Positions 17,939 to 63,068 of a stretch of DNA of 64,000 nt are shown one piece after another. The DNA lies in the NCBI RefSeq assembly GCF_025698545.1, contig NC_068567.1, positions 2,232,001-2,296,000 of the forward strand. Direction: 5' to 3'. A program made the position numbers and the translations under genes. The notes beneath the pieces were generated by a model, which worked only from the letters and a program-made list of their open reading frames with translations, made no database searches and was not told the DNA's origin. The stretch comes from Gossypium raimondii. Its lineage: Eukaryota; Streptophyta; Magnoliopsida; Malvales; Malvaceae. How positions within the stretch are numbered: position 1 is the first letter of the stretch; the number at the start of each line of letters is the position of its first letter.

Positions 17939-18139
17939 CTATACCATTCTCCTCTTTAACCCGCCGAAAAATCCAGTAGGAGCTTCTGCTTTCGATTCTG
18001 GAGAAGTTGGCTCCCTCAAAAGTACCCTATCGGCTTCAGGAGATGCTGTCTCATCAAAAGCCTTCTCCTCTTGCCCTATTACGGATTGGATTGAGAGCAC
18101 TAAAGCCAATGAGAACACAACCAAAAAAAACTTTTGCAA
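17939..18139 (-). pseudogene. Small secreted peptide copy A (start codon lost)
   Basis: The frame encodes about 66 residues. It has a hydrophobic leader (FFLVVFSLALVLSIQSVIGQ), an acidic middle (EEKAFDETASPEADRVLL) and a basic C-terminal end, EAPTGFFGGLKRRMV. I do not recognise the family. The leader looks like a signal peptide cleaved near GQ, so the mature part would be about 44 residues and secreted. At the place where copies C and D have ATG, this copy has ATT, followed by one extra T in the T-run; the frame as read begins at TTG and a stop lies just upstream. Either it is dead or it uses a non-AUG start. A W-box core (TTGACT) lies about 125 bp upstream. Confidence 0.6.
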
Positions 18140-18811
18140 TCCTTTTTATTTTCTAAAAAGGTTAAGAAATAAGTAAAGATATATTTTTATTGATGCTTAA
18201 GGATGAAGATGAGACAAAATTTAAAGATATTAAAATGAGACATTTTGGGCGAATTTAGGGGTCGTTGACTAGTCCAGTGCCTAATAGCCATACACGACAA
18301 AAATACATATAACTTCTCTCCACATTTTCAATGGTGAAGTTTATCACTATTATTGGCGAGTTCAATTTACTTCACTTTGTTTCACTTGAAGACATTGTGG
18401 GTGATCATTAATCTGTTTTAAAATCATTCTGACCTTCTCTGTTTGCATCATCTGCACCAATAAAAAACACTCCTTCGCCTTTTATAGGTCAATTTTTTTC
18501 ATGAAGCAACTTTGAACGTTACTAATTTGTGGACCAAAATCTAAATAGCTTTCTTCTTCTATAATGAATATTGACTGTTAAAAATGATGTTCTTCTACTT
18601 GTCTATAGGTATCGATCATATATAGTACTGATTGCCAAATCATCACTTAGAGCTTGCTACCTAGACTTTTCAAAAAAAAAAAGTCAAATGACTAGGCTCT
18701 TTCTTGACATTTTTAAGACCCTAGGCGGAACAATAAATTGGGGCCCCTTTTAAAAAAATTAAAAAAATGTTATGCAACAAATAAAAAAAATTGAGGCCAT
18801 TTTTTGATCCG
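18140..18811. other. Peptide gene A upstream region and dispersed repeat
   Basis: It is homologous to 30765-31440 upstream of peptide C. TTGACT at 18265-18270 is the conserved W-box core. Near 18720-18800 a dispersed repeat occurs (CCTAGGCGGAACAATAAATTGGGGCCCC), also present at 31360, 45870, 56800 and 61685. The homology then breaks off into peptide copy A2. Confidence 0.6.
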
Positions 18812-18965
18812 GTAAGAGCTTCTACTTTCGATTCTGGAGAAGCTGCCACCTTTGAACTCAAAAGTACCCTGTCAGCTTCCAAAGATGCTGCCTCATCAAA
18901 AGCCTTCTCCTCTTGTCCTACTACAAATTAGATTGAGAGCACCAAAGCCATTGAGAACACAACCA
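18812..18965 (-). pseudogene. Small secreted peptide copy A2 (5' part, broken)
   Basis: A second copy of the peptide coding sequence lies 0.7 kb from copy A, in the same orientation. The leader part is recognisable (KVFLVVFSMALVLSI) but is followed by a TAA stop where the others have CAA or CAG. The start position reads ATT and the C-terminal motif is cut off at the lower-coordinate end. Its upstream flank (18966-19480) matches that of copy B (24083-24590), so it came from a B-type block by unequal exchange. Confidence 0.7.
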
Positions 18966-20333
18966 AAAAAACCTTCACAATCTTTTTTATTTTCTAAAAT
19001 GGTTAAGAAAAAAAAGTAAACATATATTTTTATTTATGCTTAAGGTTGAAAATGAGACGAAATTTAAAGAGTTTAAAATGAGATATTTTGGGCGAATTTA
19101 GGGGTGGTTGACTAGTCTAGTGCCTAATAACCATACACGACAAAAATACATATAACTGTTCTCCACATTTTCAATGGTCATGTTTGTCACAATTATTGGT
19201 GGTTTAAATTTACTTCTTTTTGTTTCACTTGAATACGTTGCGGGTGATCGTTTCAATTTTTTTATTTTATAATTTTCACATATTTTTTCATTTATTTAAA
19301 ATTTCAACCAAACAAATTTTCTGAATTTTTTTCTACTTTTAGAAAAACAAAAAAAAAGAAATCTTTAATTTTTGAAACTAAATATACCCTAAACCTTTGC
19401 CTCCGACTCATAAGATATTAAGAATAAGGTAATTATTTGGTACACACGAAATGTAAGTTTTTATTCCACATATGAAGTTGGGATTTTGCCTCTTATCATA
19501 TATATATATATATATATAATTTTTGAATATAAATTAAATAATAAATAATAAAATCTCAATTATATTTATGAAATAAAAACCTTTCACTGTCACACCGAAC
19601 ATTTCCCCTCGTGATATCACAGTAGTCTTTGTAATCATACTGACAATCATAATGACAAAAGAAAGAAAAAGCTATGCGATATGATATTCACTAGCTTGGA
19701 AGAAATCGAATTCATAAAAAATCCTACAAACTTAATAGGTGTTTTTTTCAAGCAAGAATAATAAATTTAGGGTCGAAATTAAATAGTAATTTTTATGATA
19801 ATAAAAATGTAAATTTTAAAAGATTAAATCAAAATTTTATCATTTTAGAAAAGTTATCTTTTACTAATTTAAAATTTTAAAAATTTCTAAAAGGTCTAAA
19901 AATAAATGATAGTAAAATAATTCTAAAATCTGTCATATGCGCCAACTTGAGTTCTTGCGTCAAATATTTCGTGCTATCTACATATCCGCTCATTTCTCGA
20001 CACATTGCATAATAATTATAACTACTTAGAACATGATTAAATGCCAAATTAGATAAAATTCATGTCAAAAATAATCAAAATAAATAATAAAAATATATCG
20101 ATTAGCTGCATTATCAATGTGTAAACCTAATTTAATGTCAAACTTAAAAGTTAAAAATTTTCTTATATATAATGGTCAAACTAAATTATTGTTAAATATT
20201 ATAAATATTGATAATTAATAATAGTGTCCACACATGATTTTAATATTAATGGTCATAATGTGTCAAACAATTAAAATATTGACTTGTAAGATTGTTTCCT
20301 TAAATATTGTATATATTCGAGTTTTGCTATTGT
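18966..20333. other. Peptide A2 upstream flank and AT-rich intergenic DNA
   Basis: 18966-19480 matches 24083-24590, including TTGACT at 19108-19113. A TA microsatellite follows near 19498-19519. The part up to 20330 is AT-rich and partly shared with 24640-25100. No gene is visible. Confidence 0.6.
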
Positions 20334-21390: not shown

Positions 21391-21590
21391 GGTTTTGTTA
21401 TTGTTTTTAACATCGGCTTTTAATTTATCACAAAATTTTCGGATAATTTTTTAAAAAAATTAATTATATTTTAATTTAAAATATAGAAATTAATGAGTCC
21501 TTGCAAAGCAAGAATGTGTGTGACAGCGTGATGAATTTTTTCCCACACAAAATCCAAAAGGAATTACGAATCTTCAAATTCGTCGGCCCA

Positions 21591-21630
21591 AACGTCACCC
21601 ATTTTCATTGCTTATCATCACTTGTAAAAA
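21591..21630 (+). promoter_or_regulatory. UGT-5 core promoter: TGACG kept, TATA box altered
   Basis: AACGTCAC lies at 21591-21598. The TATA position reads TGTAAAAA at 21623-21630, 94 bp before the ATG. The upstream ACAACGTG motif found in other copies is ACAGCGTG here. Confidence 0.55.
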
Positions 21631-21716
21631 CACTTCGATTTCCTTTCTTAGTTACTCCAAATCCGACGTTCGTAAAAAAACACCAGGTGAACTACCTACG
21701 CGCCGCCGTCACCACC

Positions 21717-23255
21717 ATGTCACAGCTTCATTTCCTCCTAGTGACCTTCCCTGCACAAGGCCACATAAACCCAACCTTACAATTTGCCAAGCATCTTATA
21801 CGTATTGGCGTACGTGTAACTTTCATCACCTGCATCTCCGCTCGCCGCCGCATGAGCAAAGTCCCCACTGCTCAAGGCCTAACGTTTTTACCCTTTTCCG
21901 ATGGCTACGACGACGGTTTTCAACCCTGCGATGACATAGACCATTACCTATCTGAATTGAGGCGACGAGGCAAAGAAGCCATCTCCGAGTTTATAACAAG
22001 CAGTGAAAACGAAGGCAAACCCGTCACTTGCATTGTCTACACCCTGTTCATCCATTGGGCCTCGGAGGTGGCGCGTAAACATCACATCCCGACAGCTTTA
22101 CTTTGGATTCAACCCGCCACCGTTTTCGACATCTATTATTTTTACTTCAACGGATACGAAACGACCTTTAAAGCTCAAGCTGATGAAACAAACCCCCAGC
22201 GTTCAATAAAATTACCAGGTCTGCCGCTACTCGCCACCCGCGACCTTCCGTCGTTCCTAACCGCTTTAAACGTTTACCGTTGGGCACTGTCGCTAATCCA
22301 AGAAAAAATGGACGTCCTCGCTGATGAATCCAACCCCAAAATCCTTGTTAACACATTCGATGCTTTGGAACACGAAGCATTAAACGCCATTGAAAATTTC
22401 AACATGGTCGGCATCGGACCTTTAATCCCATCTTCTTTCTTGAACTCAAATGACTCCTTGGATAATTCCTTGAGAACCGATCTTTTTCAATCCGGTTCAA
22501 AAGATTACCTCCAATGGTTAGACTCGAAACCAAAATCGGCCGTCGTTTACGTTTCCTTCGGGAGCATTGCAGTGTTAACGAAGCAACAAGTGGAGGAAAT
22601 CGCTCGAGCTTTAATATCCAGCCGGCGACCGTTTTTATGGGTGGTGAGGAACCGGAAAGATGGAGGCTACGAAGAGAAAGAAGAAGATAAACTGACTTGC
22701 AGGGAAGAATTGGAACAGTTTGGGATGGTGGTTCCATGGTGTTCGCAAGTGGAAGTACTGTTTCATCCATCGTTGGGTTGCTTCGTGACGCATTGTGGGT
22801 GGAACTCGAGGTTGGAGAGCATGGTGGCCGGTGTACCAGTGGTGGCTTTCCCTCAATGGTCGGATCAAGGGACTACTGCGAAGCTGATTGAAGATGTGTG
22901 GGGGAATGGGGTAAGAGTGAGTGCTAATGAAGAAGGGATCGTGGAACGTGATGAGATCGTTAGGTGCTTGGATTTGGTGATGGGGGATGATGAGAAAGGG
23001 ATGCAAGTGAAGAAGAATGTTGTGAAATGGAAAGGGTTAGCGGAGAGGCCGCCATGGAAGGTGGTTCCTTGGATATCAACCTTAAAGTTTTTGTGGATGA
23101 TGTTGCTCAAGGTTGTTGCAAGTAAATTTATCTTTTCATATAATTATCTCCATTTATATTTCGAATTCTTAAATCAAGAAATAATATTTTTAAAAACGAT
23201 CAAATTCCTCTTAACTGTTGTAATAATAATAATAATAATAATAATATCAAATTAA
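21717..23255 (+). CDS. UGT-5: UDP-glycosyltransferase, UGT75 type, with frameshifted C-terminus
   Basis: Residues 1 to about 442 match the other UGTs: PAQGHINP with His16, and the PSPG box at 341-384 ending QWSDQ, with SRLES in place of STLES. At about 23043 one base is missing (TTAGCGGAGAGG against TTAGCGGGGGAGG in the 3' fragments), so the final helix (normally EAAMEGGSLDINLKVFVDDV) is replaced. The new frame continues for about 70 residues through the 3' flank and an AAT microsatellite that reads as a run of isoleucines, to a stop at 23255, giving 512 residues. The C-terminal helix packs across both domains in family structures, so stability is doubtful. The frame is open upstream to an ATG at 21531, but that lies before the TATA position. 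Confidence 0.85.
   Translation: MSQLHFLLVTFPAQGHINPTLQFAKHLIRIGVRVTFITCISARRRMSKVPTAQGLTFLPFSDGYDDGFQPCDDIDHYLSELRRRGKEAISEFITSSENEGKPVTCIVYTLFIHWASEVARKHHIPTALLWIQPATVFDIYYFYFNGYETTFKAQADETNPQRSIKLPGLPLLATRDLPSFLTALNVYRWALSLIQEKMDVLADESNPKILVNTFDALEHEALNAIENFNMVGIGPLIPSSFLNSNDSLDNSLRTDLFQSGSKDYLQWLDSKPKSAVVYVSFGSIAVLTKQQVEEIARALISSRRPFLWVVRNRKDGGYEEKEEDKLTCREELEQFGMVVPWCSQVEVLFHPSLGCFVTHCGWNSRLESMVAGVPVVAFPQWSDQGTTAKLIEDVWGNGVRVSANEEGIVERDEIVRCLDLVMGDDEKGMQVKKNVVKWKGLAERPPWKVVPWISTLKFLWMMLLKVVASKFIFSYNYLHLYFEFLNQEIIFLKTIKFLLTVVIIIIIIIISN
23220..23250. repeat. AAT microsatellite read as coding in UGT-5
   Basis: A run of TAA/AAT units, longer than the one or two units at the equivalent place near 17280 and 29918. 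Because of the UGT-5 frameshift it becomes translated as an isoleucine-rich tail. Length changes here would alter the tail length but would normally lie in the 3'UTR. Confidence 0.75.
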
Positions 23256-23890
23256 TGATCTAAAATTCGATGGAATGTTACAAATAAATTTTTAATTTAT
23301 GTTTGTATTAAATTTATGCTTAAATTAATTTTGGCCTATGGTGTAAGTTTTTTTAAAATTTTAATGGCCAAATTTAATTAATAACATCAACAATTGAATT
23401 TTAAATTTTAAGTCAAACTAAGAGACTAAAATTTAAAAATTAAAAGTAGCAGATTAAATTTTTAAAAAATTGCAAAAGAGTACAAGAATTGGGGTATACT
23501 TAAAAAATATTAAAATTTTCTTTTCTCCTCCAATAATAGAATCTAAAGTTACGCACCTTTATAAAAATTAAAAAGAGTTAATTGTCCAAGATAAATATTA
23601 AATAATAATATTTATGGACTCGAGTACATGAAATTTATTGTTGGTCACTTAATTTATCATTTAACAATTACTTTTGTTTTGGCTATTGAGAAAATTTTCT
23701 AGCCCTTATAATGTGTATATATATATCTCCATATTATTGGATGTGTTTCTTTTTATTAAATTACATTGCCTAAGGTTGCTTATTGCCATTATGGTAATTT
23801 GTTGCATCATCCCCTGACTAATTCTTCTCATTTTTAGTGTTAGTATTCTCCAACTTAAAATCTGGGTCTCATGTTGCTTTTTGAGCATCA
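23256..23890. other. Duplicated spacer between UGT-5 and peptide gene B
   Basis: It is collinear with 17300-17938 and 29940-30557. AT-rich, no gene. Confidence 0.65.
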
Positions 23891-24079
23891 TTATACCACT
23901 CTCCTCTTCAACCCGCCGAAAAATTCAGTAGGAGCTTCTGCTTTCGATTCTGGAGAAGCTGCCACCCTTGAAGTCAAAAGTACCCTGTCAGCTTCCAAAG
24001 ATGCTGCCTCCTCTTGTCCTACTACAAATTGGATTGAGAGCACCAAAGCCAATGAGAACACAACAAAAAAAACCTTCAC
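23891..24079 (-). pseudogene. Small secreted peptide copy B (open frame, start codon lost)
   Basis: The frame encodes about 62 residues: leader KVFFVVFSLALVLSIQFVVG, a short acidic middle (QEEAASLEADRVLL) and the C-terminal motif EAPTEFFGGLKRRVV. Relative to copies A and C it lacks the KAF-DE stretch after QEE and the AF-SS region differs. The aligned start codon is ATT at 24082-24080, and the frame as read begins at GTG. Frame preservation without an AUG is odd for a simple relic. TTGACT at 24211-24216 lies upstream at the same place as in the other copies. Confidence 0.55.
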
Positions 24080-24587
24080 AATCTTTTTTTATTTTCTAAA
24101 ATGGTTAAGAAAAAAAAAGTAAACATATATTTTTATTTATGCTTAAGGTTGAAAATGAGATGAAATTTAAAGAGTTTAAAATGACATATTTTGGGTGAAT
24201 TTAGGGGTGGTTGACTAGTCTAGTGCCTAATAACCATACACGACAAAAATACATATAATTTCTCTCCACATTTTTAATGGTCATGTTTGTCACAATTTTT
24301 GGTGGTTTAAATTTACTTCTTTTTGTTTCACTTGAATACGTTGTGGGTGATCGTTTAAATTTTTTATTTTATAATTTTCACATATTTTTTCATTTATTTA
24401 AAATTTCAACCAAACAAATTTTCTCAATTTTTTTCTACTTTTAGGAAAACAAAAAGAAAAGAAATCTTTAATTTCTGAAACTAAATATACCCTAAACCTT
24501 TGCCTCCGACTCATAAGATATCAAGAATAAGATAATTATTTGATACACATGAAATGAAATTTTTATTAAGTTGGGATTTTGCCTCTT

Positions 24588-24624
<37 letters not shown>

Positions 24625-25519
24625 TGAATATAAATTAAAAAACAAATATTAAAATCCCAACTCGATTTATGAAATAAAAACCTTTCACCGTCATACCGAA
24701 CATTTCCCCTCGTTGTATCACAATAATCTTTGTAATCATAATGACAAAAGAAAGAAAAAGCTGTGGGGTATGATATTCACTACCCTCCAATTATGAGACT
24801 CATAACAGAGGGGAATTAAGAAAAAAAAATTTTAGAGTCGAAATTAAATAGTAATTTTTACGGTAGTAAAATGTAAATTTTAAAGGATTAAATCAAAATT
24901 TTATTGTTTAAAAAAAAGCTAAAGTGCAACTTTCCTTTTACTAATTTAAAATTTTAAAAATTTCTAAAAATTCTAAAAAATAAATGATAATAGAATAATT
25001 TTAAAATCTTTGTCATATACGCCAACTTGAGTTTTTGCGTCAAATATTTCGTGCTATCTGCATATCCGCTCATTTCTTGACACATTGCATAATAATTATA
25101 ACTACGCCGTCACCACAAAATCTTTTATATTCGGTTCTACAATTGCTTTTAACTTCGGTCACAAACAAAATTTTTTTTCTTAGTTATTAATAATAAAAGT
25201 GGATTATTTTATTACAAAATTAATTTATGTTATATTTTCGTTGTATAATAATTATATCTACATAAAAATAATCGATTAAATTTCAGATTAGGTAAAATTT
25301 ATTTCCAAAATTACTTAACATAATTCATAAAAATACTTCACATTATCAATGCGTCAACTTAGTTAAATGTCAAACTTAAAAAAATGTATAATGTGAACAT
25401 GGCTAAAAATTTTCTTTTTTAGATAAAACCTTAAAATAATATTTTATGGATTTTTACTTATATAATATAAAAAATTGAAATTAATAACTGAAATGGCATG
25501 CCCATGAGATTATTTACCA
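24080..25519. other. Peptide B upstream flank and AT-rich intergenic DNA
   Basis: It contains the W-box core at 24211-24216, a TA microsatellite at about 24590-24618, and segments shared with 19000-20000. No convincing gene was found. Confidence 0.6.
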
Positions 25520-28396: not shown

Positions 28397-29285
28397 AATT
28401 ATCAGTTTCAAATCAATTCACTGTTTCAATTCAATTACTAGTAATGTGTTATGCATATAATTATTGATTTAATATATATTCTCCAATTGAATCATTTTAA
28501 GTTCCTATTTTTTTTCGAATTCTGAAATTTTCTTCTCGATACAAATAATAATCACTAATCCATTAACTAAAATTTCAGTAAGTAATATGTGAAAATCGCA
28601 AACTAAAATGCCATTACACATATCATAATATGTTTGTTACATCAAATTTTGAAAATAATGAATTTAATAAATTTAACAATTATCGTTTAGTGAAGACTGA
28701 AATTTTAAAATTTAAAAAGTAACAAGATTAAAATGACCAAATAAAGTATAAGTATTAAATCTACAATTTTTATAAAGTAAGACTAATAATAAAATTTAAC
28801 CTTGTTTTTTCTTGAAAGAACTTGGAAGTGACCATTAAGTATAATATGTGAATCATGTGATAGATTTTGAATGTGGAAACAAACTTTTTGAAATGTGGTT
28901 GTAAGATGGAGTGGGTTGGATTTTGTGTGTGTAGTCAATGTGTAATTCTTTGCCTTTATACTATATAAAAGTATCATATTATCCGTTTAATATGTATAAC
29001 TATTTAAATATTTAGAAATGCGAAATGTATTATAGAAAAGCCTTTAGGTTTAATTTTAAAATTTTATGTTTCTAAAGTCACTAAATTATTAGTAAATTTA
29101 TGTTTTGATTACTCAACTTCAAAAAATTACAAAATGGTAATGAGTTATTAGAAAATTTTCATTCAAGTAGTTGAACTATTCAGTTTTTTTATTATTTAAG
29201 TTATTATGCTATTAAGTTCTTTTAAATTCAATTAATGAGCTCCAACTGATGATTTAACAATCGTAGAGTGGATTAGTACTCACCG
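28397..29285. other. Flank between UGT-6 and UGT 3' fragment 2
   Basis: It is collinear with 15890-16680. Compared with the UGT-3 flank it lacks the roughly 300-bp TTTAGTCCC repeat section. No gene. Confidence 0.65.
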
Positions 29286-29821
29286 ACGAGTAGAGGAAAT
29301 CGCTTGAGCTTTATTATCCAGCAGGCAACCGTTTTCATGGGTGGTGAGGAACTGGAAAGATGGAGGCTACGAAGAGAAAGAAGAAGATAAACTGACTTGC
29401 AGGGAAGAACTGGAACAGTTTGGGATGGTGGTTCCATGGTGTTCGCAAGTGGAAGTATTGTCTCATCGTCGTTGGGTTGCTTCGTGACACATTGTGGGTG
29501 AAACTCGACGTTGGAGAGCAGCCAGTGTACCGGTGGTGGCTTTCCCTCAATGGACGGATTAAGGGACTAATGCGAAGCTGATTGAAGATGTGGGGGGAAT
29601 GGGGTGAGAGTGAGTGCTAATGAAGAAGGGATCAGGGAACGTGATGAGATTGTTAGATGCTTGGGTTTGGTGATGGGGGATGAGGGGAAAGGGGTGCAAG
29701 TGAAGAAGAATGTTGAGAAATGGAAAGGGTTAGCAGGGGAGGCCGCCATGGAAGGTGGTTCCTTGGATATCAAACCTTAAAAGTTTTTGTAGATGATGTT
29801 GCTCAAGGTTGTTGCAAGTAA
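29286..29821 (+). pseudogene. UGT 3'-terminal fragment 2
   Basis: It begins at the same point of the UGT coding sequence as fragment 1 (GTAGAGGAAATCGCTTGAG) and ends with the normal stop context GGTTGTTGCAAGTAA. It carries its own extra damage, including loss around GAGAGCAGCCAGTG near 29515 and a TAA inside the former donor box (GGATTAAGGG). It is the block partner of fragment 1 and is non-coding. Confidence 0.88.
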
Positions 29822-30557
29822 ATTTATCTTTTCATATAATTATCTCCATTTACATCTCGAATTCTTAAATCAAGAAATAATATGTTTAAAAACGATCAAA
29901 TTCTTCTTAACTGTTGTAATAATAATATCAAATGATCTAAAATTCGATGGAATGTTACAAATAAATTTCTAATTTATGTTTGTATTAAATTTATATACTT
30001 AAATTAATTTTAGCCTATGGTGTAAGTTTTTTTAAAATTTAATGGTCAAATTTAATTAATAACACCATCAATTGGATTTTAAATTTTAAATCAAACACGA
30101 GACTAAAATTTAGTAATTAAAAGTGGCGGATTAAATTTTAAAAAATTGCAAAAGAGTACAAGAATTGGGGTATACTTAGAAAAATATTAAAATTTTCTTT
30201 TTCCTCCAATAGTAGAATCTAAAGTTACGCACCTTTATAAAAATTAAAAAGAGTTAATTATCCAAGATAAATATTAAATAATAATATTTACGAACTTGAG
30301 TGCATGAAATTTATTGTTGTTCAATGAATTTATTGTTTAATAATTACTTTTGTTTTGGCCATTGGGAAAATTTTCTAGCCCTTATAATATATATATCCAT
30401 ATTATTGGATGTGCTTCTTTTATTCAATTACGTTGCCTAAGGTTGCTTATTGCGATTATGGTAACTTGATGCATCATCCCTTGGCTAATTCTTCTCATTT
30501 TTAGTGTTAGAATCCTCCTCCTTAAAATTTGGCTCTCATGTTGCTTTTTGAGCATCA
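29822..30557. other. Duplicated spacer before peptide gene C
   Basis: It is collinear with 17190-17938 and 23130-23890; a section from about 30190 is also found at 60540-60896. No gene. Confidence 0.65.
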
Positions 30558-30764
30558 TTATGCCATTCTTCTCTTAAACACGTCGAAAAATCCAGTAGGA
30601 GCTTCTACTTCTGATTCTGGAGAAGTTGCCTCCTCTGAACTCAACAAAACCCTATCGACTTCCGGAGATGCTTCCTCATCAAAAGCCTTCTCCTCTTGTC
30701 CTACTACGAATTGGATTGAGAACACCAAAGCCAATGAGAACAAAACCAAAAAAACCTTCGCCAT
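30558..30764 (-). CDS. Small secreted peptide C (intact copy, unrecognised family)
   Basis: A 68-residue frame with a proper ATG at 30764 (AAGATGGCG context). It has a hydrophobic N-terminal leader, MAKVFLVLFSLALVFSIQFV, ending VGQ, so a signal peptide is likely. Then comes a Glu/Asp-rich middle (EEKAFDEEASPEVDRVLL), a Ser/Pro segment (SPESEVEAPT) and a basic end, GFFDVFKRRMA. There is no cysteine, no second membrane segment and no GPI signal. I infer a secreted peptide precursor whose conserved last 15 residues may be the active part. It converges on the UGT 3' end of the same block. A W-box core, TTGACT at 30889-30894, suggests WRKY control. I match it to no named peptide family. Confidence 0.65.
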   Translation of the reverse strand: MAKVFLVLFSLALVFSIQFVVGQEEKAFDEEASPEVDRVLLSSEEATSPESEVEAPTGFFDVFKRRMA

Positions 30765-30888
30765 CTTTTTTATTTTCTAAAAAGGTTAAGAAATAAGTAA
30801 AGATATATTTTTATTGATGCTTAAGGATGAAAATGAGATGAAATTTAAAGAGTTTAAAATGTGGTATTTTGGGCAAATTTATGGGTCG

Positions 30889-30894
30889 TTGACT
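30889..30894 (+). promoter_or_regulatory. W-box core upstream of peptide C
   Basis: TTGACT lies about 125 bp before the peptide C start and is preserved at the same place before copies A (18265-18270), A2 (19108-19113) and B (24211-24216). In copy D the site reads TTGATC (about 61229). Such a short core is common by chance; the positional conservation partly reflects shared ancestry. Confidence 0.35.
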
Positions 30895-31570
30895 AGTCCA
30901 GTGCCTAATAGCCATACATGACAAAAATACATATAACTTCTCTTCCCATTTTCAATGGCCATGTTTATCACTATTATTGGTGGGTTCAATTTACTTCACT
31001 TTGTTTCACTTGAAGACGTTGTGGGTGATCGTTGATGTATTTTAAAATCATTCTGACATTCTCTGTTTGCATCACCTGCACCAATAAAAAACACTCGTTC
31101 TCCTTTTATAGGTCAAGTTTTTTCCTTGAAACAACTTCGAACGTCACTAATTTCTGGACTAAAATCTAAATAGCTTTCTTCTTCTATATCGAATACTGAC
31201 TGTTAAATTGCCTTGGACTTAAGGTATGTTCTTCTACTTGTCTATGGTATCGATCACAGTACCGATTGTCAAATCGTTGTTTGGAGCTCGCTAGCTAGAC
31301 TTTAAAAAAAAAAAAAACAACAACCAAGTAACCATGCTCTTCTTGACATTTTTAGGACCCTAAGCGAAACAATAAATTAGGGTCCCTTTTTAAAAAAATA
31401 AAAAATATTATGCAACAAAATAAAAAAATTGAGGCCTTTTTTTCCGCCTGCAATAAATCGAAAGATTTAAATGGTTGAAATTTTCTTTTTCCACGTTGAA
31501 AACTAAAAAAAATGGGCCCCTTCCGGTCCAGGCCCTGGGCCCTAGGCGGGCGCAATCTCAAACTACCCCC
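30895..31570. other. Peptide C upstream flank with dispersed repeat
   Basis: It is homologous to 18271-18780 and 61235-61860. Near 31350-31560 it holds the repeat marked by ACAATAAATTAGGGTCCC and a GC-rich end (GGCCCTGGGCCCTAGGCGGG). No gene. Confidence 0.55.
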
Positions 31571-32393
31571 AGGGGTGAGCTTGCAAGTGACTTAAATAAA
31601 AATCTTCAGAATAGTTCAGTAATCATTTCTAAAGTCAAGTAAATAATTAACCATAATTCTTTAGAAAAATATTTGAACATAAAACATATAAAATTTTCTA
31701 TAATATATTATTACATTTTTTTAACCTTTTCAATAGTTATATATAGAAGGATAAAATGATAATTTAATCTCGTGGAGCAGGGTGCAGTAAACAATTACCA
31801 TAATTGCTCCATACTCACTATAAAAAAATAAATCCACCTCGCCCTTCTCCATATCCACTTTTTAAAAAAAAATTATCTCCATCTGGAGCGGATAGATTCG
31901 GAATCCATGGAGTGATTCGGGTTTTACCATCCTTAGTTACACATCTATACTATTACTTTAATCTCATTGAAGCCAATCTCACTGCCCATCCAAAAGGATC
32001 TGAAAGTTTCAAATGGTAACAACAACAATGGTTTAGATAAATGGATTTGTACGTGGATGTGGGTTTTTTAAATGAAAAATGAAAGTGAAAGTGTAAGTAC
32101 TATAGTCCTATCTAACATAAGTCATCTTGTTAATTGAGTTTTAGTTCGATTCGTAAGTTGCTAATTGCAACAACCAATAAAACATTGGTTTAAGCACAAT
32201 TAAATGCATTTTTAATCTGATTTAAGAGTTGAGCATGAATTATGAATAGAAGTAAGCATTTTTATATTAAAAAAAATTATGTTAACTCTTCGCGCATTTA
32301 TTGTTCCGAAATAATGTTGGAACACTATAAATATTTGAAAATGTTCCAACATCTCTATCCTTTCTTAATAGGAGAATGACAAATTAAATTTTT
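31571..32393. other. Intergenic block shared with 61861-62552
   Basis: GAGCTTGCAAGTGAC to GAATTATGAATAGAAGTAAG is collinear with the copy near the right end of the window, so the peptide-gene block and its far flank were duplicated together over at least 2 kb. No gene is supported. Confidence 0.65.
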
Positions 32394-34345: not shown

Positions 34346-34851
34346 CTATATTTTTAAATTTTAAAAAAATAAAAAATCATATTTTTAAAAATAAAAAATT
34401 TAAATTTAAACTTAAAAAAAATTAAAACATATTTTAACCTTCAAATATTTTACTGTATAATTGTGACTTCCACTTTATCTTTGTTAATTTCCTACTTATT
34501 TCCATAATCTAAACAGAGAAAACAAAGGACAAAGAAAGAAAGAAAGGAATGAATAGAATGAATTAAAATATTTGCTGGTACTCCTCCAATAAATAATAAA
34601 TAATTTATGCATCATGACTAACAGCTTTAAATAATAAATTATTATCCCTTGCTTTAATATGTTGGAAAAAATTGACCAAAAAGACTTAACTAAATTGGTG
34701 GAACAGTATTTTGATGGAGTCTGGATTTGGCAAAATGACTTAGAAATTGCATGCATTGCCGATCACTCATGAACATTGTTCTATGGAAACTACACGTTTG
34801 TGTATAAATATGTTGTATGCCAAACACAATCCTCCTTCACACCCACCAAAC
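34346..34851. other. RLP-1 upstream region
   Basis: 34560-34851 matches 49690-49987 upstream of RLP-3. It contains a W-box and a TATA box (listed separately). Confidence 0.65.
34672..34810 (+). promoter_or_regulatory. RLP-1 promoter elements: W-box and TATA box
   Basis: TTGACC at 34672-34677 is a full W-box core, about 175 bp before the ATG. TATAAATA lies at 34803-34810, 42 bp before the ATG, which implies a very short leader. Both are kept at equal spacing in RLP-3 (49808 and 49939). Confidence 0.5.
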
Positions 34852-37800
34852 ATGAACACCCTTCATTCCCTTATTTCTTCACTCTTTCTCTTCTCATGCT
34901 TCCTTCCTCTTCTCTTGTCTTTTTCACCTCCTCAAACTCATCTCCCAATGCAATGCCTTGATGACCAGAGATCTCCTCTGCTGCAATTGCAACATCATCT
35001 TTACTATGCCCCTCATTTTACTTTCTCTTCCAAATTTGACCTCTGGGATGTCAACACTGATTGTTGTTCTTGGGAAGGAGTCACTTGTGATGCTTATGGT
35101 CATGTCATTGGCATTGATCTTAGTTACAAAAACCTTTCAGGCAGCTTCCACTCCATATTCTATCTCCATCATCTTCAACACCTGAATCTTGCTGGAAACA
35201 ACTTTAATACGACTCTGTTTTCCTATAGGTTTGATAAACTCCAAAATCTAACTCATCTCAACCTTTCAAGCTCATGTTTCCATGGCCAAATTCGAGTGGA
35301 GATCTCACACCTAACAAGGTTAGTCTCTCTTGATCTATCCAATCAAGATGATTGCTATTGGAGAAATGGTTACTATTATAATTCAGCTACTTTAAAATTG
35401 GAGAAACCAAACTTCAAGACATTTATTAAGAATTTGAAGTTTCTCACGGAGCTTTATTTGGATGGAGTCGACATTTCAACTCAAAGTACTAAATGGTGCG
35501 AAACCACATCTCTTGTACTTCCAAACCTGCATGTGTTGAGTCTGTCAAGCTGTGGTTTGAAAGGTCCATTATGTTCTTCACTCTCAAGACTCTCTTTTCT
35601 TTCCAAACTTATCCTTGATGGGAACCCGATCTCTTATTTACCTCCCAATTTCTTGGTAAATTCCTCTCGTTTGGTTTCTCTCAGTTTGAGTGGCTGCAAT
35701 TTGAATGGGCAATTTCCAACCGGAATTCTCTTATTGCCACAAATTCAAAGCATTCACATTTCATCTAATGACCAACTTAAGGGTCAGTTGCCAGAATTTC
35801 CAGTAAACAATGCATTACTGAGTCTGTCACTTTTTGAGACAAATTTCAGTGGAAAACTACCTCAATCAATTGGTAATCTCAAGTTCTTGACTAATTTAAA
35901 GCTGTCTAGTTGCAATTTTTTTGGACCCATTCCATCGTCAATTGCAAATCTTAGTTACCTGGTGAACTTGGATCTAAGGTCAAACAAGCTTTCTGGATCA
36001 ATACATTCTTCTTTATTTACTCTTCAATCGTTGAAGACCTTGATTCTTGGAGAAAATCAATTGGTTGGGAAAATTGATGAGTTCCCCAATGCATCTTCTT
36101 CTTCGATTCAAGAATTATATATAGGCAATAATTATTTAACAGGACCAATCCCGAAGTCAATCCTTCAACTTCCAAGGCTTGAAGGGCTTTATATTGGAGA
36201 AAATAGCTTCAGTTCCATGAAGCTTGACATGTTTGTCCAACTCAAGAACTTAAAGGGTCTCCACTTATCCAACGTAAGCTTGTTAACTGAAAGCGACAAC
36301 AAAAGTCTTACTTTTCCCCAATTAGAGAGCCTAAGCCTAAGGTCATGCAACCTTACTGAATTTCCAGAATTCATTAAAAGGCAAGACAAGTTGAAATATC
36401 TTGACCTTTCAAATAATAAAATAAGTGGTGCAATACCAAACCAGGTGTAGAAGAAAAGTTTGCGGTATCTGTTTCTTGCTAATAACCATCTCTCATCTTT
36501 GGACCAACTTTTACCCAATCAGAGTTCAACTTCTTCACAAACCTCCTTGACTAGACCTATTTGCAATTTGAGTCAACTTAGAAATTTCAATGCATCTCAT
36601 AACAATTTGAGCGGCCCGATTCCAAATTGCTTAGGCAAAATGAATGATCTCAATTTGTTGGATCTGCAAGGAAATAACTTCAGTGGAATGTTACCAAAAT
36701 TTTCAAAAGCAACCCAATTATATATTCTCAAAGTTAGTGAGAATAGATTGGAAGGGAAGTTGCCTAGATCATTAGTGGAATGCACTCTGCTTGAAGTTTT
36801 GGACGTGGGAAACAACATGATGAATGATACATTCCCTTTTTGGTTGCAGAAATTGCCTTACTTGATGGTTCTAATATTGCGGGAAAACAGATTTTATGGT
36901 CAAATTAAACATTTCAAACATAAATTTGTTTTCCCAAATTTGGATGTGTTGGACATTGCTTCAAACCAGTTTTCTGGTGAACTATCCATTAATTTCCTTC
37001 AAACCACTCGACTAAGGTCACTCAAAATAGGTGGGAATAAATTAGAAGGGAAGTTGTCGAGATCATTAGCCAATTGTAAAGCACTTGAGGTTCTGGACCT
37101 TGGAAATAATATGGTTCATGATACATTCCCATTTTGGTTAGAGAAACTGCCTTCTTTGAAGGTTCTCATTTTGCGAGCAAACAGATTCTACGGCACAATT
37201 GCAGAATTCAACACAGAACGTGGGTTTCCAAAGCTACGCATATTGGACATTGGTTCCAACAATTTTTCAGGCAACTTGTCCATTGAATTTTTGCTAAGCT
37301 TGAAGGCAATGATGCAGTTAAGAAATGACGACAAAGCTAAGCTGGATTACATTGGAGAGGATTATTATCAAGATTCAGTAACAATTTTCAACAAAGGGAT
37401 TGAAATGTTCTACCAAAAAGTCTTGACAATTCTTACTTGTCTCGACCTTTCCAACAATAGTTTCCATGGGAGAATACCAGAAGAAATACAAATGCTGAGG
37501 TCACTCAAAGTGCTAAACTTGTCCTATAATAGCTTCTCCGGTGAAATCCCGGTAGCACTTGGAAACCTAAAAGATCTCGAGTCTTTGGATCTCTCACAGA
37601 ATGAGCTGTCAGGGAAGATTCCTCCACAACTTACAAGTTTAACTTTCTTAGCAGCATTGAACTTGTCTTACAACCAACTTGAAGGGAGCATACCACAAAG
37701 CAACCAATTCATTACATTTTCAAATGATTCCTACCATGGGAACCCAAAATTGTGTGGGCTGCCACTGTCAAGGAAATGCAATGAAGTTGGTCTTCCAATG

Positions 37801-37992
37801 CCACCACCTCCAAGGGGAGATGAAGAATCATGGTTATATGCTATGACTACTTGGAAAATTGCGTTGATGGGTTATGCTAATGGATTGGTCGTTGGGCTAT
37901 GTATCGGATATACAGGGCTGAATGAGTTGGGAAACAAATGGGTTGACAGGCTCAAAAAACACGGGGAAAGAAACAAAAGAAGATCTAGGTGA
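34852..37992 (+). pseudogene. RLP-1: Cf-9-like receptor-like protein, one internal stop
   Basis: One frame of 1047 codons, broken only by TAG at 36448 (codon 533), where RLP-3 has TGG (Trp) in an aligned NWLWKSSL context. Parts in order: signal peptide (MNTLHSLISSLFLFSC...), LRRNT cap with DCCSWEGVTCD, a long run of extracellular LRRs, an island near codons 829-850 (LDYIGEDYYQDSVTIFNKG), four last LRRs, a Cys cap (GNPKLCGLPLSRKC), an acidic/proline stretch (PPPPRGDEESW), one membrane helix with GLVVG (GxxxG type), and a basic tail (KKHGERNKRRSR) without kinase. Cf-9-like RLPs sense apoplastic ligands and signal through SOBIR1. As read, the product is a secreted 532-residue LRR fragment. An ATG-less open stretch upstream from 34747 is not the start. 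Confidence 0.88.
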
Positions 37993-43047: not shown

Positions 43048-44562
43048 ATGATATTTTCAAGGCCTATTTGCAATTTGAGTCAACTTATATATTTCAATGC
43101 ATCTCATAACAATTTGAGTGGCTCAATTCCAAATTGCTTGAACAATATGAGTCAAATTTACACTTTCGATGTATCTTATAACAATTTGAGTGGCCCAATT
43201 CCAAATTGCTTGGGCAATATGAGTGCTCTGAGTTGGTTGGGTTTGCAAGGAAATAACTTCAGGGGAATGATGCCAAAATTTTCAAAAACAACCCAACTGC
43301 GCTTTCTGAAAGTTAGTGAGAATAGATTGGAAGGGAAGTTGCCCAGATCATTAGCTGAATGCACTCAGCTTGAAGTTTTGGACGTGCGAAACAGCAAGAT
43401 GAATGATACATTCCCTTTTTGGTTGGAGAAATTGCCTTACTTGACGGTTCTAATATTGCGGGAAAACAGATTTTATGGTCAAATTAAACATAGATTTGTT
43501 TTCCCAACTTTGGGTGTGTTGGACATTGCTTCAGACCAATTTTCTGGTGAACTATCCATTGATTTCCTTCAAGCCACTCGACTAAGGTCACTCAAAATAG
43601 GTGGGAATAAATTAGAAGGGCAGTTGTCGAGATCATTAGCCAATTGTAAAGCACTTGAGGTTCTGGACCTTGGAAATAATATGGTTCATGATACATTCCC
43701 ATTTTGGTTAGAGAAGCTGCCTTCCTTGAAGGTTCTCATTTTGCGAGCAAACAGATTCTACGGTACAATTACAAAATTCAACACAGAACATGGGTTTCCA
43801 AAGCTACGCATATTGGACATTGCTTCCAACAATTTTTCTGGCGACTTGTCCATTGAATTTTTGCAAAGCTTGAAGGCAATGATGCAGTTAACAAATGACG
43901 ACAAAGCTAAGCTGGATTACATTGGAGAGAATTATTATCAAGATTCAGTGACAATTTTCAACAAAGGGATTGAGCTGTTTTACGAGAAAATCTTAACCAC
44001 TCTTACTTGTCTTGACCTTTCCAACAATAGTTTCCATGGGAGAATACCAGAAGAAATACAAATGCTGAGGTCACTCAAAGTGCTAAACTTGTCCTATAAT
44101 AGCTTCTCCGGTGAAATTCCAGTAGCAGTTCAAAACCTAAAGGATCTGGAGTCTTTGGATCTCTCACAGAAAGAGCTATCAGGGAAGATTCCTCCACAGC
44201 TTACAACTCTAACTTTCCTAGAGGCACTGAACTTGTCTTACAACCCACTTGAAGGGAGCATACCGCAAGGCAACCAATTCAGTACATTTTCAAATGATTC
44301 TTATCGTGGGAATCCAAAATTATGCGGTCAACCATTGTCCAAGAAATGCAATGAAAACTGTCTTCCAGTGCCACCGCCTCCAGGGGAAGAGGAACAGTCA
44401 TGGATATATGCTATGTCAACTTGGAAAATTGTTTTGATAGGTTATGGTAGTGGTTTGGTCGCTGGGCTATGTATCGGATATACAATGTTGAATGAGTTGG
44501 GAAACAAATGGGTTGACAAGTTCAAAAAACATGGGAAAAGAAACAGAAGAAGATCTAGGTGA
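43048..44562 (+). pseudogene. RLP-2: Cf-9-like RLP, N-terminally truncated
   Basis: An uninterrupted frame of 504 residues covers only the C-terminal half: LRRs from RPICNLSQL, the island (LDYIGENYYQDSVTIFNKG), the last four LRRs, the Cys cap (GNPKLCGQPLSKKC), the acidic stretch (PPPPGEEEQSW), a membrane helix with GLVAG, and the basic tail (KKHGKRNRRRSR). Signal peptide, LRRNT and about 500 residues of LRRs are missing. RLP homology starts at about 43060, where the threefold intergenic block stops. The ATG at 43048 is a chance in-frame codon in that block. Without a signal peptide it would not be a normal receptor. The frame is otherwise clean, so truncation may be recent. It has a strong 3'UTR intron. 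Confidence 0.85.
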
Positions 44563-49946: not shown

Positions 49947-49987
49947 AGTTGTATGCCAAACACGATCCTCCTTCACACCCACCCAAC

Positions 49988-58755: not shown

Positions 58756-60540
58756 TATTTTTTCAGTTATTAATGTAAGGAAAAAAATTAAGTAAAATAA
58801 ATTAATTAAATACATAGGGTTTTCTATTTTCACTATAAATATTTCATCTCCTAGACCGCAAAATATGTCCAGCTTTTATTGCATTACATTTTATATAATT
58901 TTTAAAAAACCTAATTTATTATTTGTCTGAAACCCAAAAATATTAACAACTGGCCTGAAAATTAGTAGAACATAATAATTAAGTAATGACCGAACAATAG
59001 GAGTCATTTGCAAGTATGCATGGCAAGACTAAGTCAAAGATTAAATTTGATAAAAACCCATGCATAGTATCGTTTCTCTGTTAGTTCTACACTAAAAACA
59101 TATAATTTCCAAAATAAATCTATGAGCTTTGTCTCTAAATACATTGTGTTGTTCTACACTCAATGTCGAGCTTTGTGGAGTTTAGGAGGGATTTTAAATT
59201 ATTGAGAGATAAATTTTCAATGAATTGAACTTGAGATGAATAATATGATTACAATCTAATTGATTCAAGATGATCAGTTGAGTTCCACCATTCAGCTGTG
59301 TTACGAACTATTAAAGAAATTATTCAACGTCTTTGGATGATTAAGGTGACAAATGTATTCAAATAAGGTAACTGAGTAGTCGATGGACCGAAAGCAATGA
59401 TATTTTCAAGGCGTCTAGGCATGTATAGTTATATGCAACCCTTGGATAAATTTCTTCAAAAGTTATATGATTATTGCTCTGGAATGACCTGGCCCGACTT
59501 AATCCAATTATGATTTTATGTTTGTTCATGTAAAAAGGAAGAAAGAAAGATAACGAATTTAAATAATTGAAGAGAATAAAAATTAATTATGTAAATCACC
59601 GATAAAAAGAATCTAATTTTGGACTTAAAAAACTATATGGTGGTTGCATTTCAATTGGTTGGACAAACTTTGAAAGTGTAAAGGATTGAAAAGTAGCTAA
59701 TATTATAAGACATTTCAACTAAGCTCTGATCATCATTTTCAATCAACCCAAAATATAAATTTTGGAATTTTTATGAATATTTTAAAAGTTTTGTTGAGAG
59801 ATAATTTTTTAAGTTTCAAAATTTATAGGGATCAAATGAGTATGTATACTAATCATTGTATGAATTATTCAAATTATTTGAGTTATTCAAATTTTAAAAT
59901 TTAACTCGAAACTTGACTTATAAATATTTTTATGTTTTATATTTAATAATATAAAACATAAAAATTATTTAAATTAAAAATAATGTAAAAATGAAAGTCT
60001 TTCTCCAAACTTCACCCAAAAACACTTTAAGAAAATTTCACTCCTTGTGTCCATCAATCCATCTCAACCAACTAACAAATTTACTATAATTTTGTCTTTA
60101 TAATGTGACTTCACTTGTGCACAATGGTTGAACGTTTGTTTTTGTGCAATCAAAATTTGGACGTTTGTATGCAACGCCAAAGACTTATGATATTTCATAC
60201 TATCATTTTTTTCGATCCAAAATTAAAGATATTAAAAATTTCAAATTAGAACATTATTTATAATTTGAGCACTTAATTAGAACATTATGAAATCTAGATA
60301 CTTTAAAAAATTTTATAATTTTTAAAATAGATTTTTAATTTTAAAATTTTAAAATTATTAAATGATGAGGTGTCATCCATGTGACAATTCATGTGTATGC
60401 CACATTAGCAAAGTTAAAAAATCGTTAACATTTCTATCCATTTTGGGAGATTTGATAAAACACAAGTTTAAAGATTAAAAACATAAAAAAATAAATGAAT
60501 GACTAAAATAACTTTTTTTGTAAACTGGAGGCCAAATAAG
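58756..60540. other. Intergenic DNA made of RLP-flank repeats
   Basis: 58800-59410 matches 42440-43050. 58980-59760 matches 32510-33310. The part after 59760 resembles 57530-58110. No gene is supported. Confidence 0.65.
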
Positions 60541-60896
60541 TCATTACGACAAAAAATTAAAAAGTATTTTCTCCTCCAAAAGTAGAATCAAGTTAAGTGG
60601 ATATTAAATAATAATATTTACAGACTCGAACATCAAAATGTATGAAATTTATTGTTGTTCAATAAATTTATTGTTTAATAATTACTTTTGTTTTGGCCAT
60701 TGGGAAAACTTACTAGCCCTTATAATATATATATCCATATTATTGGATGTGCTTCTTTTATTCAATTACATTGCCTAAGGTTGCTTATTGCGATTATGGT
60801 AACTAGATGTATCATCCCCTGACTAAATCTTCTCATTTTCAGTGTTAGAATCCTCCTCTTTAAAATTTGGGACTCATGTTGCTTTTTGAGCATCAC
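60541..60896. other. Spacer 3' of peptide copy D
   Basis: It is collinear with 30190-30557, without any UGT sequence beyond it. The peptide block was therefore copied here without its UGT neighbour, or the UGT part was lost. Confidence 0.6.
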
Positions 60897-61104
60897 TATA
60901 CCATTCTCCTCTTAAACACGTCGAAAAATCCAGTAGGAGCTTCTACTTCCGATTCTGGAGAAGTTGCCTCCCTTGAACTCAACAAAACCCTATCAGCTTC
61001 CGGAGATGCTATACCTCATCAAAAGCCTTCTCCACTTGTCCTACTACGAATTGGATTGAGAACACCAAAGCCAATGAGAACACAACCAAAAAAACCTTCG
61101 CCAT
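60897..61104 (-). pseudogene. Small secreted peptide copy D (frameshifted)
   Basis: The ATG is kept at 61104 (ATGGCGAAGG) and the leader is as in copy C (MAKVFLVVFSLALVFSIQFV). Two extra bases near 61012 (GCTATACCTC against GCTTCCTC) shift the frame and give a stop after about 31 residues. The C-terminal motif is still readable out of frame. It is a pseudogene, or makes only a signal-peptide-sized product. Confidence 0.7.
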
Positions 61105-62552
61105 CTTTTTTATTTTCTAAAAAGGTTAAGAAATAAGTAAAGATATATTTTTATTGATGCTTAAGGATGAAAATGAGATAAAATTTAAAGAGTTTAAAAT
61201 GAGATGTTTTGGGCGAATTTATGGGTCGTTGATCAGTCTAGTGCCTAATAGTCATAACAACAAAAATACATATAAATTCTCTCCCCATTTTCAGTGGCCA
61301 TGTTTATCACTATTATTTTCGGGTTCAATTTACTTCACTTTGCTTGACTCAAAGACGTTGTGGGTGATCGATGATGTGTTTTAAAATCATTCTGACCTTC
61401 TCTGTTTGCATCACCTGTACCAATCAAAAACACTCATCCTTTTATAGTTTAATGTATTTTCCATGAAACAACTTCGAACGTCAAGCAAAATCTAAATAAC
61501 TATCTTCTTCTATATCGGATACTGACTGTTAAATTACCTTGGATTTAAAGTATGTTCTTCTACTTGTCTATGGTTATCGATCATAATACCGATTGCCAAA
61601 TCGTCGCTTGGAGCTTGCTACCTAGGCTTTTCAAAAGAAAAAAAATTAATAGCCAAATGACCAGGCCAGTTCTTGGCATTTTTGGGGCCCTAGGCGAATC
61701 AATAAATTGGGGCCCCAGATTATAAGATGTAATACAATATAACAAAAAAAATTGGGGCCTTTTTTTTCTGCATGCAATAAATCAAAAGATTTAAAAGGTT
61801 GAAGATTTTTATTTGAGACCCTTCCAGCCCTGGGTGATTACACTCTGAAACTACCCTTAGGGTCGAGCCTGCAAGTGACGTAAATAAAAATCTTCTGAAT
61901 AGTTCAGTAATCATTTTTAAAGTCAAGTAAATAATTAACCGTAATTCTTCAGAAAAATATTTGAACATAAAATTTATGAATTTTTCTATAATACATTATT
62001 ACATTTTTTTCACATTTTCAATAGTTATATATACAATGATAAAATGATAATTTAATCTCGTGGAGTGGGCAAGGTAATAATTTACCATAATTGCTCCATA
62101 CTTGCTATTTTAAAAAAAAAATCCACCTCGCCTTGCTCTACACCCACTTTTGAAAAAAAATCCTCTTTATCTGTAGTGGATTGATTCGGGATCCATAGAG
62201 TGGTTCGGGTCTTACCATCCCTAGTTACACATCTATACTATTATTTTAATCTTATTGGAACCAATCTCATTGCCCAACCAAAAGGACCCAAAAGGCTTTA
62301 AATGATAATAACAACAATGGTATAGATAAATGGATTTATACGTGAATGTGGTTTTTTTTAAAAGAAAACTGAAAGTGACAATATAAGTGCTATATTCCTA
62401 TCTGACATAACTCATCTTGTCAATTGAGTTTTAGTTCGATTAGTATCATTGCTAATTGCAACAATCAAGAAAATGTTGGTTTAAGCACAACTAAGTAAGT
62501 GTATTTTTAATCTGATTTAAGAGTTAAGGGTGAATTATGAGTAGGAGTAATG
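61105..62552. other. Peptide D upstream flank
   Basis: It is collinear with 30765-32270. It holds the dispersed repeat CCTAGGCGAATCAATAAATTG near 61688. It ends at GAGTAGGAGTAA, where an LTR begins. No gene. Confidence 0.6.
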
Positions 62553-63068
62553 ATAAGTGATAAAAGTAACATATTTTAATCTCGTTCTTAATGCGTTTTT
62601 GGATGATTATTTATGCAAATTGGTAAATTTTATGCTCCTGATCCTTTAAATTAATGTTTTTATACTTAAAAGAGCATTTGGGAGCAAAAGGAGCGAAAAA
62701 ACAAGTAAAAATCAGACAAATAGAGCATATTTCAAGAGCCACATAGGCTAGACACACGACCGTGTAAGCCACACAGGCTGGCACACGGCCATGTGCCACA
62801 CAGGCTGGCAGACTGTGTCAATTATGCGATTTGTATCCCAAACATGCGGAAAAATGCAATTTTTATGATTTCGTGGCATTCTAAAGTCTATAAATACCAA
62901 ATATAATATGAGAAGTGGGGGAGATCAGAGAGTATTGAAGGAAACAACTCGAAGAACTCTATTGAAGCCAACTTTGAAGTAGATTTCTATCAAGATTGAA
63001 GATCTTCTTTTAATTTCTTTGAAGCTTTTATGAGTTTCTTTATCTCTTATGGTTATATTGACTTTGAG
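62553..63068. mobile_element. LTR fragment with ACACGGCC repeats (fossil)
   Basis: It starts TGATAAGTGATAAAAG at the break in homology to 32270. It contains three related units (CACACGACCGTGTAAGCC, ACACAGGCTGGCACACGGCC, CACACAGGCTGGCAGAC) and CTATAAATACC. This unit type is what I associate with cotton Gypsy LTRs. The right side is cut by other sequence; no coding domain. Confidence 0.6.

What the first reader, a model, noticed from the sequence alone, without database searches (positions are those of the whole stretch)
30558..30764. Candidate new secreted-peptide family tied to the UGT array
Five copies of a short gene (near 18.0, 18.9, 24.0, 30.7, 61.0 kb) share a signal peptide, an acidic middle, SPES-type segment and a basic end (EAPTGFFGGLKRRMV in copy A). 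The C-terminal end is better kept than the middle (the middle has indels), the pattern of a processed peptide hormone or amphipathic defence peptide. Copies follow UGT 3' ends in convergent orientation in three blocks. It fits none of the CLE, CEP, PIP, RGF, PSK, IDA or SCOOP motifs known to me.
Basis: partly seen in the sequence, partly recalled or inferred. Interest (0 to 1): 0.75.

Follow-up and report, generated by a model that had tools for sequence, protein, structure and literature searches.

The report
Decaying short secreted-protein gene copies
The short secreted-peptide gene is real and belongs to a gene family found at other places in the same plant genome, but it looks like a cut-down, mostly broken leftover of a longer secreted protein rather than a new peptide hormone.

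Summary
The 68-residue ORF at 30558-30764 (-) exists, with a signal-peptide-like start; five copies lie in the window and a sixth about 31 kb beyond it. Only 1 of 6 is intact: three lack the ATG, two carry 2-nt frameshifts. Three of six follow UGT ends, because they share a duplicated block. Homologues exist elsewhere in the genome: a 12-copy tandem array (8 open) plus a fragment, longer relatives (one intact, 225 aa), and more distant intact genes. The end KRRMA/KRKMA-stop is the long form's SRKMGKDGLVD cut by a frameshift; ancestral C-terminal codons are still readable behind the stop in another frame. Maximum-likelihood dN/dS is 0.85-1.08 on C3 and 0.92-1.00 on C1, 95% intervals about 0.45-1.7 and 0.6-1.4; cruder NG86 gives 0.74 on C1. 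The C-terminus is not better kept than the middle on C3. Best reading: truncated, near-neutrally decaying duplicates of an uncharacterised small-secreted-protein family. Transcription and other species could not be tested.

The parts
30558..30764 (-). copy d: intact 68-aa ORF (signal-like aa 1-22, acidic middle, end APTGFFDVFKRRMA)
   Evidence: only intact copy of six
17939..18139 (-). copy a: homologous frame without ATG, 6-nt deletion
   Evidence: tblastn 73%
18807..18981 (-). copy b: no ATG, in-frame TAA, 3' end lost
23891..24082 (-). copy c: no ATG, 15-nt deletion
60896..61104 (-). copy e: ATG present, 2-nt insertion frameshift at CDS position 91
30765..31050 (-). upstream region of copy d; matches 24 other places in the genome: 21 on C3 and C1 at 75-95% (the long forms over part of it) and three on C5 at 69-74% (partial)
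30350..30557 (-). 3' flank of copy d holding out-of-frame remnants of the long form's C-terminal codons (EPNFKEEDSNTKNEKN), followed by homology to the long form's own 3' flank
28968..31443 (.). duplicated block (UGT 3' fragment + copy d), 88% to 16366-18805 (copy a)
22586..24366 (.). duplicated block (UGT 3' part + copy c), 88-89% to 16679-18420 and 29286-31044
58790..63057 (.). block holding copy e, 90% identical to the block with copy f about 28-33 kb beyond the window end

Best explanation
The ORF is the one still-open C3 copy of a 3'-truncated subfamily of single-frame genes for small, cysteine-free secreted proteins. Shown: a longer relative (225 aa; signal sequence, then two units of the type GEQLKKIITDPNFQSGVAKLVEKFKSSVGDDSxSVDGxTSxLxDEVAASPES, then SRKMGKDGLVD...NTENEKN) is intact at one locus; in the short form the frame breaks just after KRKM/KRRM so that a stop follows, and old C-terminal codons remain in the 3' flank in another frame. 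Shown: the short form was multiplied in two places, a tandem array on C1 and, inside duplicated blocks of UGT parts and other sequence, on C3; in C3 five of six copies are disabled, and maximum likelihood finds no purifying selection in either array. Inferred: the C3 copies, including copy d, are non-functional or nearly so, carried along by unequal crossing-over of the blocks; if copy d is transcribed it would give a secreted, mostly unstructured acidic peptide of about 46 residues with no dedicated receptor-binding end. The functional members, if any, are more likely the long form and the C5 genes.
For: Disabled copies 5 of 6 on C3; codon positions 1/2/3 change evenly, for example 8/7/10 between a and d; omega 1.08 (GY94) or 0.85-0.88 (MG94) for six C3 copies and 0.97 or 0.92-1.00 for eight open C1 copies, none different from 1, profile intervals about 0.45-1.7 and 0.6-1.4; coding start no better kept than the upstream region between C3 and C1 (mean p 0.188 and 0.157); long-form homology and frame-shifted remnants behind the stop; duplicated blocks explain the UGT linkage; a substitution-only neutral simulation gives 5.7 of 12 open C1 copies against 8 observed, P(>=8) = 0.19.
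Against: If the copy broken only by indels (917579) is counted as open for the substitution-only simulation, 9 of 12 are open and P(>=9) = 0.08. The 60 nt before the ATG are better kept (0.035) than the coding part (0.082-0.116) within C3, and the upstream region is shared by long and C5 genes, so transcription may matter. Copy d itself is intact. An omega of 0.5 is not excluded for C3, nor about 0.65 for C1. No transcript data.
Confidence: 0.7

Rival explanations
1. The short form is a functional, fast-evolving secreted peptide family (defence or signalling); the truncation created a new product, the C1 array is the working set and copy d is its one active C3 member. Relaxed or diversifying selection would then explain maximum-likelihood dN/dS near 1.
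For: 8 of 12 C1 copies open, slightly above the neutral mean; NG86 pN/pS about 0.5 in the signal and in the last 12 columns of C1; upstream region kept, with a recalled W-box core (AGTCAA, TTGACT on the other strand) about 130 bp before the ATG in 11 of 13 copies examined; LRR receptor-like genes nearby.
Against: C3 copies disabled 5 of 6; no excess conservation of the end on C3; maximum-likelihood omega not different from 1 in signal (1.17, or 0.75-0.86 with C3 and long forms added) or mature part (0.97); a 6-base motif shared by duplicates is weak evidence.
Confidence: 0.22
2. One reading: a peptide hormone processed from the C-terminus of a precursor and functionally linked to the UGT array.
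For: Signal-like start, acidic middle and KRR-type end in copy d; position behind UGT 3' ends in three blocks.
Against: The end is the relic of a longer coding region and not better kept than the middle on C3; UGT ORFs at 2456, 8317, 14161 and 26801 have no copy directly behind them (behind the last two a UGT 3' fragment intervenes); copies e and f lie in a block without UGT similarity; no UGT was seen in the fetched C1 stretches (by eye); two of the three UGTs in question are 3' fragments.
Confidence: 0.04
3. The unit works as a non-coding transcript or is a small dispersed repeat, and the ORF is incidental.
For: Upstream part as well kept as the ORF; 25 upstream matches genome-wide, copy d included.
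Against: Relatives keep 121-225-aa frames with a similar N-terminus at separate loci; no Rfam match in 29800-32300; most copies are in two local clusters.
Confidence: 0.04

Closest known systems
Lineage-specific small secreted proteins (SSPs) of plants, e.g. the Populus effector-like SSPs (PMC5428498, seen in search listing only)
   Same: small, secreted-looking plant proteins without a named domain here; the comparison rests on the listing and recall
   Different: no expression evidence here; the short form is a truncation and mostly disabled on C3
Post-translationally processed peptide hormones (CLE, CEP, PIP, RGF/GLV, PSK, IDA, SCOOP; motifs recalled)
   Same: signal-like start and acidic middle
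   Different: no matching recalled pattern, no better-kept C-terminal block on C3, no constraint by maximum likelihood
DUF1216 family of Brassicaceae (PMC11020792, title and abstract start in search listing only)
   Same: a lineage-specific plant family expanded by duplication (its title)
   Different: no DUF1216 match among the proteins of this family scanned against Pfam
UGT family 1 (PF00201) tandem array in the window
   Same: physical neighbour in three duplicated blocks
   Different: the short form's largest array lies elsewhere, with no UGT seen in the fetched stretches (by eye)

Membership tests
Plant processed peptide hormone precursor | N-terminal signal peptide | tested here: inconclusive
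   Hydrophobic aa 4-22 (mean KD 2.5) and predicted helix 2-26; copies a, b, c lack the ATG; no signal-peptide predictor was available
Plant processed peptide hormone precursor | C-terminal (or internal) block more conserved than the rest of the precursor | tested here: not met
   C3: C-term 0.213 against middle 0.183 amino-acid difference, p 0.68. C1: pN in the last 12 columns 0.138, the highest of five segments, though pS is high there too
Plant processed peptide hormone precursor | Purifying selection on the peptide | tested here: not met
   omega 0.85-1.08 on C3 and 0.92-1.00 on C1, not different from 1; NG86 0.74 on C1 leaves weak constraint possible
Plant processed peptide hormone precursor | Release of a defined mature peptide and receptor binding | not testable with these tools
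   needs apoplast mass spectrometry and peptide assays
CLE/CEP/PIP/RGF/PSK/IDA/SCOOP | family-specific motif (patterns recalled) | tested here: not met
   no pattern matched in copy d
Truncated derivative of the long secreted-protein family of this genome | shared N-terminus and upstream region with long members | tested here: met
Truncated derivative of the long secreted-protein family of this genome | remnants of the long C-terminal codons behind the short stop | tested here: met
   (EPNFKEE / NTKNEKN-type remnants in another frame); blastn E 3e-19 to L016 and 6e-22 to C1:687k behind the stop
Pseudogene array | disabling changes in most copies and no constraint | tested here: met
   5 of 6 C3 copies disabled; for the C1 array this is not so clear: 4 of 12 disabled plus one fragment
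Any Pfam, NCBIfam or PDB family | score above cut-off | tested here: not met
   Pfam and NCBIfam: nothing at a cut-off (lowest NCBIfam E-value 0.0017, 17.8 bits against a cut-off of 255); PDB: nothing below E 0.047

The most novel reading that the evidence does not exclude
A lineage-specific family of secreted helical proteins (C1 long form, C5 genes) repeatedly gives rise to truncated secreted peptides whose weakly constrained sequences diversify quickly while the upstream region is kept, a birth-and-death reservoir of candidate immune or signalling peptides, with copy d a live member beside a cluster of LRR receptor-like genes.
Probability: 0.12. Interest if true: 0.6.

Novelty: new member of a known kind. 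Interest (0 to 1): 0.27.

Why it matters
It replaces a peptide-hormone claim by a traceable history: a longer secreted protein, a frameshift that made a short form, and duplication in two arrays, one decaying. It also points to the loci worth studying: the intact 225-aa gene on C1, and the 164-aa gene and three 121-aa genes on C5, none of which matches a Pfam or NCBIfam family above cut-off.

Tried and rejected
UGT-linked function: rejected on the block structure and on copies without a UGT. C-terminal conservation: rejected for C3. Known families: Pfam, NCBIfam, PDB and Rfam searches gave nothing above cut-off (the Pfam matches of the UGT and LRR neighbours apart). Weak hits treated as noise: leghemoglobin at E 0.71, a de novo protein at E 0.047, bacterial nqrC at E 0.0017 with 17.8 bits against a cut-off of 255, CGI121 at E 0.71. 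A single-sequence AlphaFold model of copy d is confident only for the signal helix (mean pLDDT 68, pTM 0.32), so no fold search was made. Literature: five searches listed no paper whose listing describes this family; in the review PMC11756074 only the passages for four terms were seen.

Weak points of my own analyses: the combined N-terminal test has three long-form rows shifted by one codon over the last ten codons, so only its signal-only row (omega 0.75-0.86, p 0.32-0.61) should be used. In one search the tree was built on an alignment that includes poorly aligned 3' flanks (branches c919931 and c924969 look inflated), so the neutral expectation of open copies is, if anything, too low; the simulation has no indels, while copies e, f and 917579 are broken by indels only. 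In one search copies c and f are locally misaligned (deletion in c; f cut two bases off), which inflates the C3 values. hhalign of the C5 proteins against the C1 long form found no mature-part homology (probability 0.2-0.3%), so C5 is linked to C1 and C3 only by the upstream region (68% over 236 nt, E 6e-19) and the signal sequence. The two C5 groups match each other (hhalign E 1.7e-5, probability 78%). The 121-aa genes' NG86 ratios (0.68, 1.35 and 0.41 on 14, 12 and 10 changes) show no clear constraint either.

Full report
What is there. The window lies at G000:C3:2232001-2296000 of a 750.8-Mb genome in 281 contigs. The 68-aa ORF at 30558-30764 (-) is present. tblastn and blastn give five copies in the window, tblastn E 3e-40 to 2e-20, and a sixth at C3:2326611-2326805, about 31 kb beyond the window end.

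State of the copies. Aligned to copy d: a (17939-18139), b (18807-18981) and c (23891-24082) read ATTG in place of ATG; b also has a TAA in the signal sequence and loses homology near position 174; c lacks 15 nt; e (60896-61104) has a 2-nt insertion at position 91 and f a 2-nt insertion at position 10. So 1 of 6 is intact. Substitutions fall evenly over codon positions (for example a against d 8/7/10; c against d 8/12/10).

Linkage to UGTs. Self-comparison of the 98.4-kb C3 stretch (matches of 350 nt or more) shows that copies a, c and d lie in one duplicated block type (16679-18420, 22586-24366, 29286-31044; 88-89%), each beginning in a UGT 3' part; e and f lie in another block (58790-63057 and 92450-96753, 90%) without UGT similarity, and b shares its flank with c (18812-20025 and 23928-25105). 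UGT ORFs at 2456, 8317, 14161 and 26801 have no copy directly behind them. The linkage is best read as hitch-hiking.

Homologues elsewhere in the genome. A tandem array on C1 (889872-927553, spacing 2.2-2.4 kb from 903499 to 919931) holds 12 copies with the start region plus one 3' fragment; 8 of 12 are open (97-123 aa; seven end KRKMA, one KRKRA) and 4 are broken (908231 stop and 1-nt deletion, 910454 late stop, 917579 indels, 919931 stop). Long relatives lie at C1:676-702 kb and C1:14.57 Mb: 686825-687499 is intact with 225 aa; 691875-692369 and 14570657-14571160 have one stop each; the others are broken or partial. The upstream region as probe gave 25 places, copy d included, among them C5:52914670 (in front of a gene for 164 aa, intact) and two at C5:40.88-40.90 Mb; a third copy there was found by protein. 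The three genes at C5:40.88-40.92 Mb are intact with 121 aa, two of them 93% identical to the third. The genome search scores only the best candidates, so these counts are lower bounds (tool note).

Origin of the short form. Alignment of the 3' parts puts the short stop within the long coding region: the long form reads ...SPESEVEIDTEIVGGLSRKMGKDGLVDLKEM...NTENEKN-stop; C1 short forms read, for example...SPESEVEFATESVGGSKRKMA-stop and continue out of frame as GIVDPDDV-stop-KVTLDPIFFKEVSKAV; the C3 copies read ...SPESEVEAPTGFFDVFKRRMA-stop (copy d) and continue out of frame as EPNFKEEDSNTKNEKN. Protein alignment A2 shows the same. blastn from copy d matches the long forms behind its own stop with E 3e-19 and 6e-22. 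The KRRMA end is therefore read as the cut edge of an older protein.

Selection. NG86 over 28 pairs of the eight open C1 copies: pooled pN/pS 0.74, pairs 0.47-1.32; by segment (pN/pS) signal 0.064/0.136, then 0.125/0.116, 0.051/0.079, 0.105/0.073 and last 12 columns 0.138/0.259. The signal and the last segment thus lean towards constraint, against my reading. Maximum likelihood with omega free against omega 1: C3 six copies 1.08 (GY94) and 0.85-0.88 (MG94, three frequency settings), C1 eight copies 0.97 and 0.92-1.00; smallest p 0.62 and 0.68; d, e, f alone 0.71, p 0.58; C1 signal alone 1.17, p 0.74, mature part 0.97, p 0.90. Profile likelihood puts omega between about 0.45 and 1.7 (C3) and 0.6 and 1.4 (C1), so strong constraint is excluded and weak constraint is not. 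A substitution-only neutral simulation predicts 5.7 (sd 2.1) of 12 open C1 copies, observed 8 (P(>=8) 0.19) or, counting the indel-only copy 917579 as open, 9 (P(>=9) 0.08); on C3 it predicts 3.1 of 6, observed 1, or 3 if e and f, broken by indels only, are counted as open. The simulated chance that copy d stays open is 0.44, so its open frame is no evidence of function.

Upstream region. About 280 bp before the ATG are homologous in all six C3 copies and 12 C1 copies and in part in the long and C5 genes. Mean divergence there and in the first 105 coding nt is 0.157 and 0.188 between C3 and C1, 0.091 and 0.082 within C1, 0.101 and 0.165 within C3, the last inflated by misalignment. Within C3 the 60 nt before the ATG differ least (0.035). 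An AGTCAA (recalled W-box core TTGACT on the other strand) stands near -130 in 11 of the 13 copies examined.

Structure and families. A single-sequence model of copy d is confident only for the signal helix; a short terminal helix 60-67 has low confidence. No match above cut-off in Pfam or NCBIfam for the window ORF, short and long C1 members or the C5 genes that were scanned, no significant PDB match, no Rfam match around the locus.

Verdict. The interpretation as a new processed peptide family tied to UGTs is mostly wrong: it is best read as a truncated, decaying branch of an uncharacterised secreted-protein family. What cannot be excluded is that the C1 array, and with lower odds copy d, makes a weakly constrained secreted peptide. 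On rechecking, the NG86 segment values and the 9-of-12 count moved my odds slightly (main reading 0.72 to 0.70, functional rival 0.20 to 0.22).

Noticed in passing
L055:1501-2175 (-), G000:C1:686825-687499: Intact 225-aa secreted-looking protein with two copies of a unit of the type QLKKIITDPNFQSGVAKLVEKFKSS...DEVAASPES, no Pfam or NCBIfam match above cut-off; possibly close to the ancestral form.
   Followed up: partly
G000:C5:40875216-40875578, 40894772-40895134, 40919962-40920324 (L065-L067) and C5:52914147-52914638 (L045): Four intact small secreted-looking, cysteine-free proteins (121 and 164 aa) sharing the signal sequence and, in three of the four, part of the upstream region with this family.
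   Followed up: partly
G000:C1:903499-925337: Array members of 122-123 aa carry one more 25-26-codon unit (type GPHSSLADEIAVSPESEVEVATESVD) than those of 97 aa, so unit number varies by internal duplication.
   Followed up: no
window 34783-37992, 43048-44562, 49871-53259: Cluster of LRR receptor-like protein ORFs, some split into two frames, duplicated several times in and beyond the window.
   Followed up: no
window 21531-23255: UGT ORF whose C-terminus is replaced by a frameshifted tail, unlike the UGT ORFs at 2456, 8317, 14161 and 26801.
   Followed up: no
window 30765-31050 (-): AGTCAA motif (TTGACT on the other strand, recalled W-box core) near -130 in 11 of 13 copies examined.
   Followed up: partly
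G000:C1:903681-925486: Antisense frames of 142-198 aa are also open over several C1 copies, and one of 80 aa over copy d (30538-30780 +); probably codon-composition shadows.
   Followed up: no
G000:C3 about 2298.3-2302.3 kb (window coordinates 66.3-70.3 kb): Copia-like (recalled likeness) retroelement frames just outside the window; observed only.
   Followed up: no
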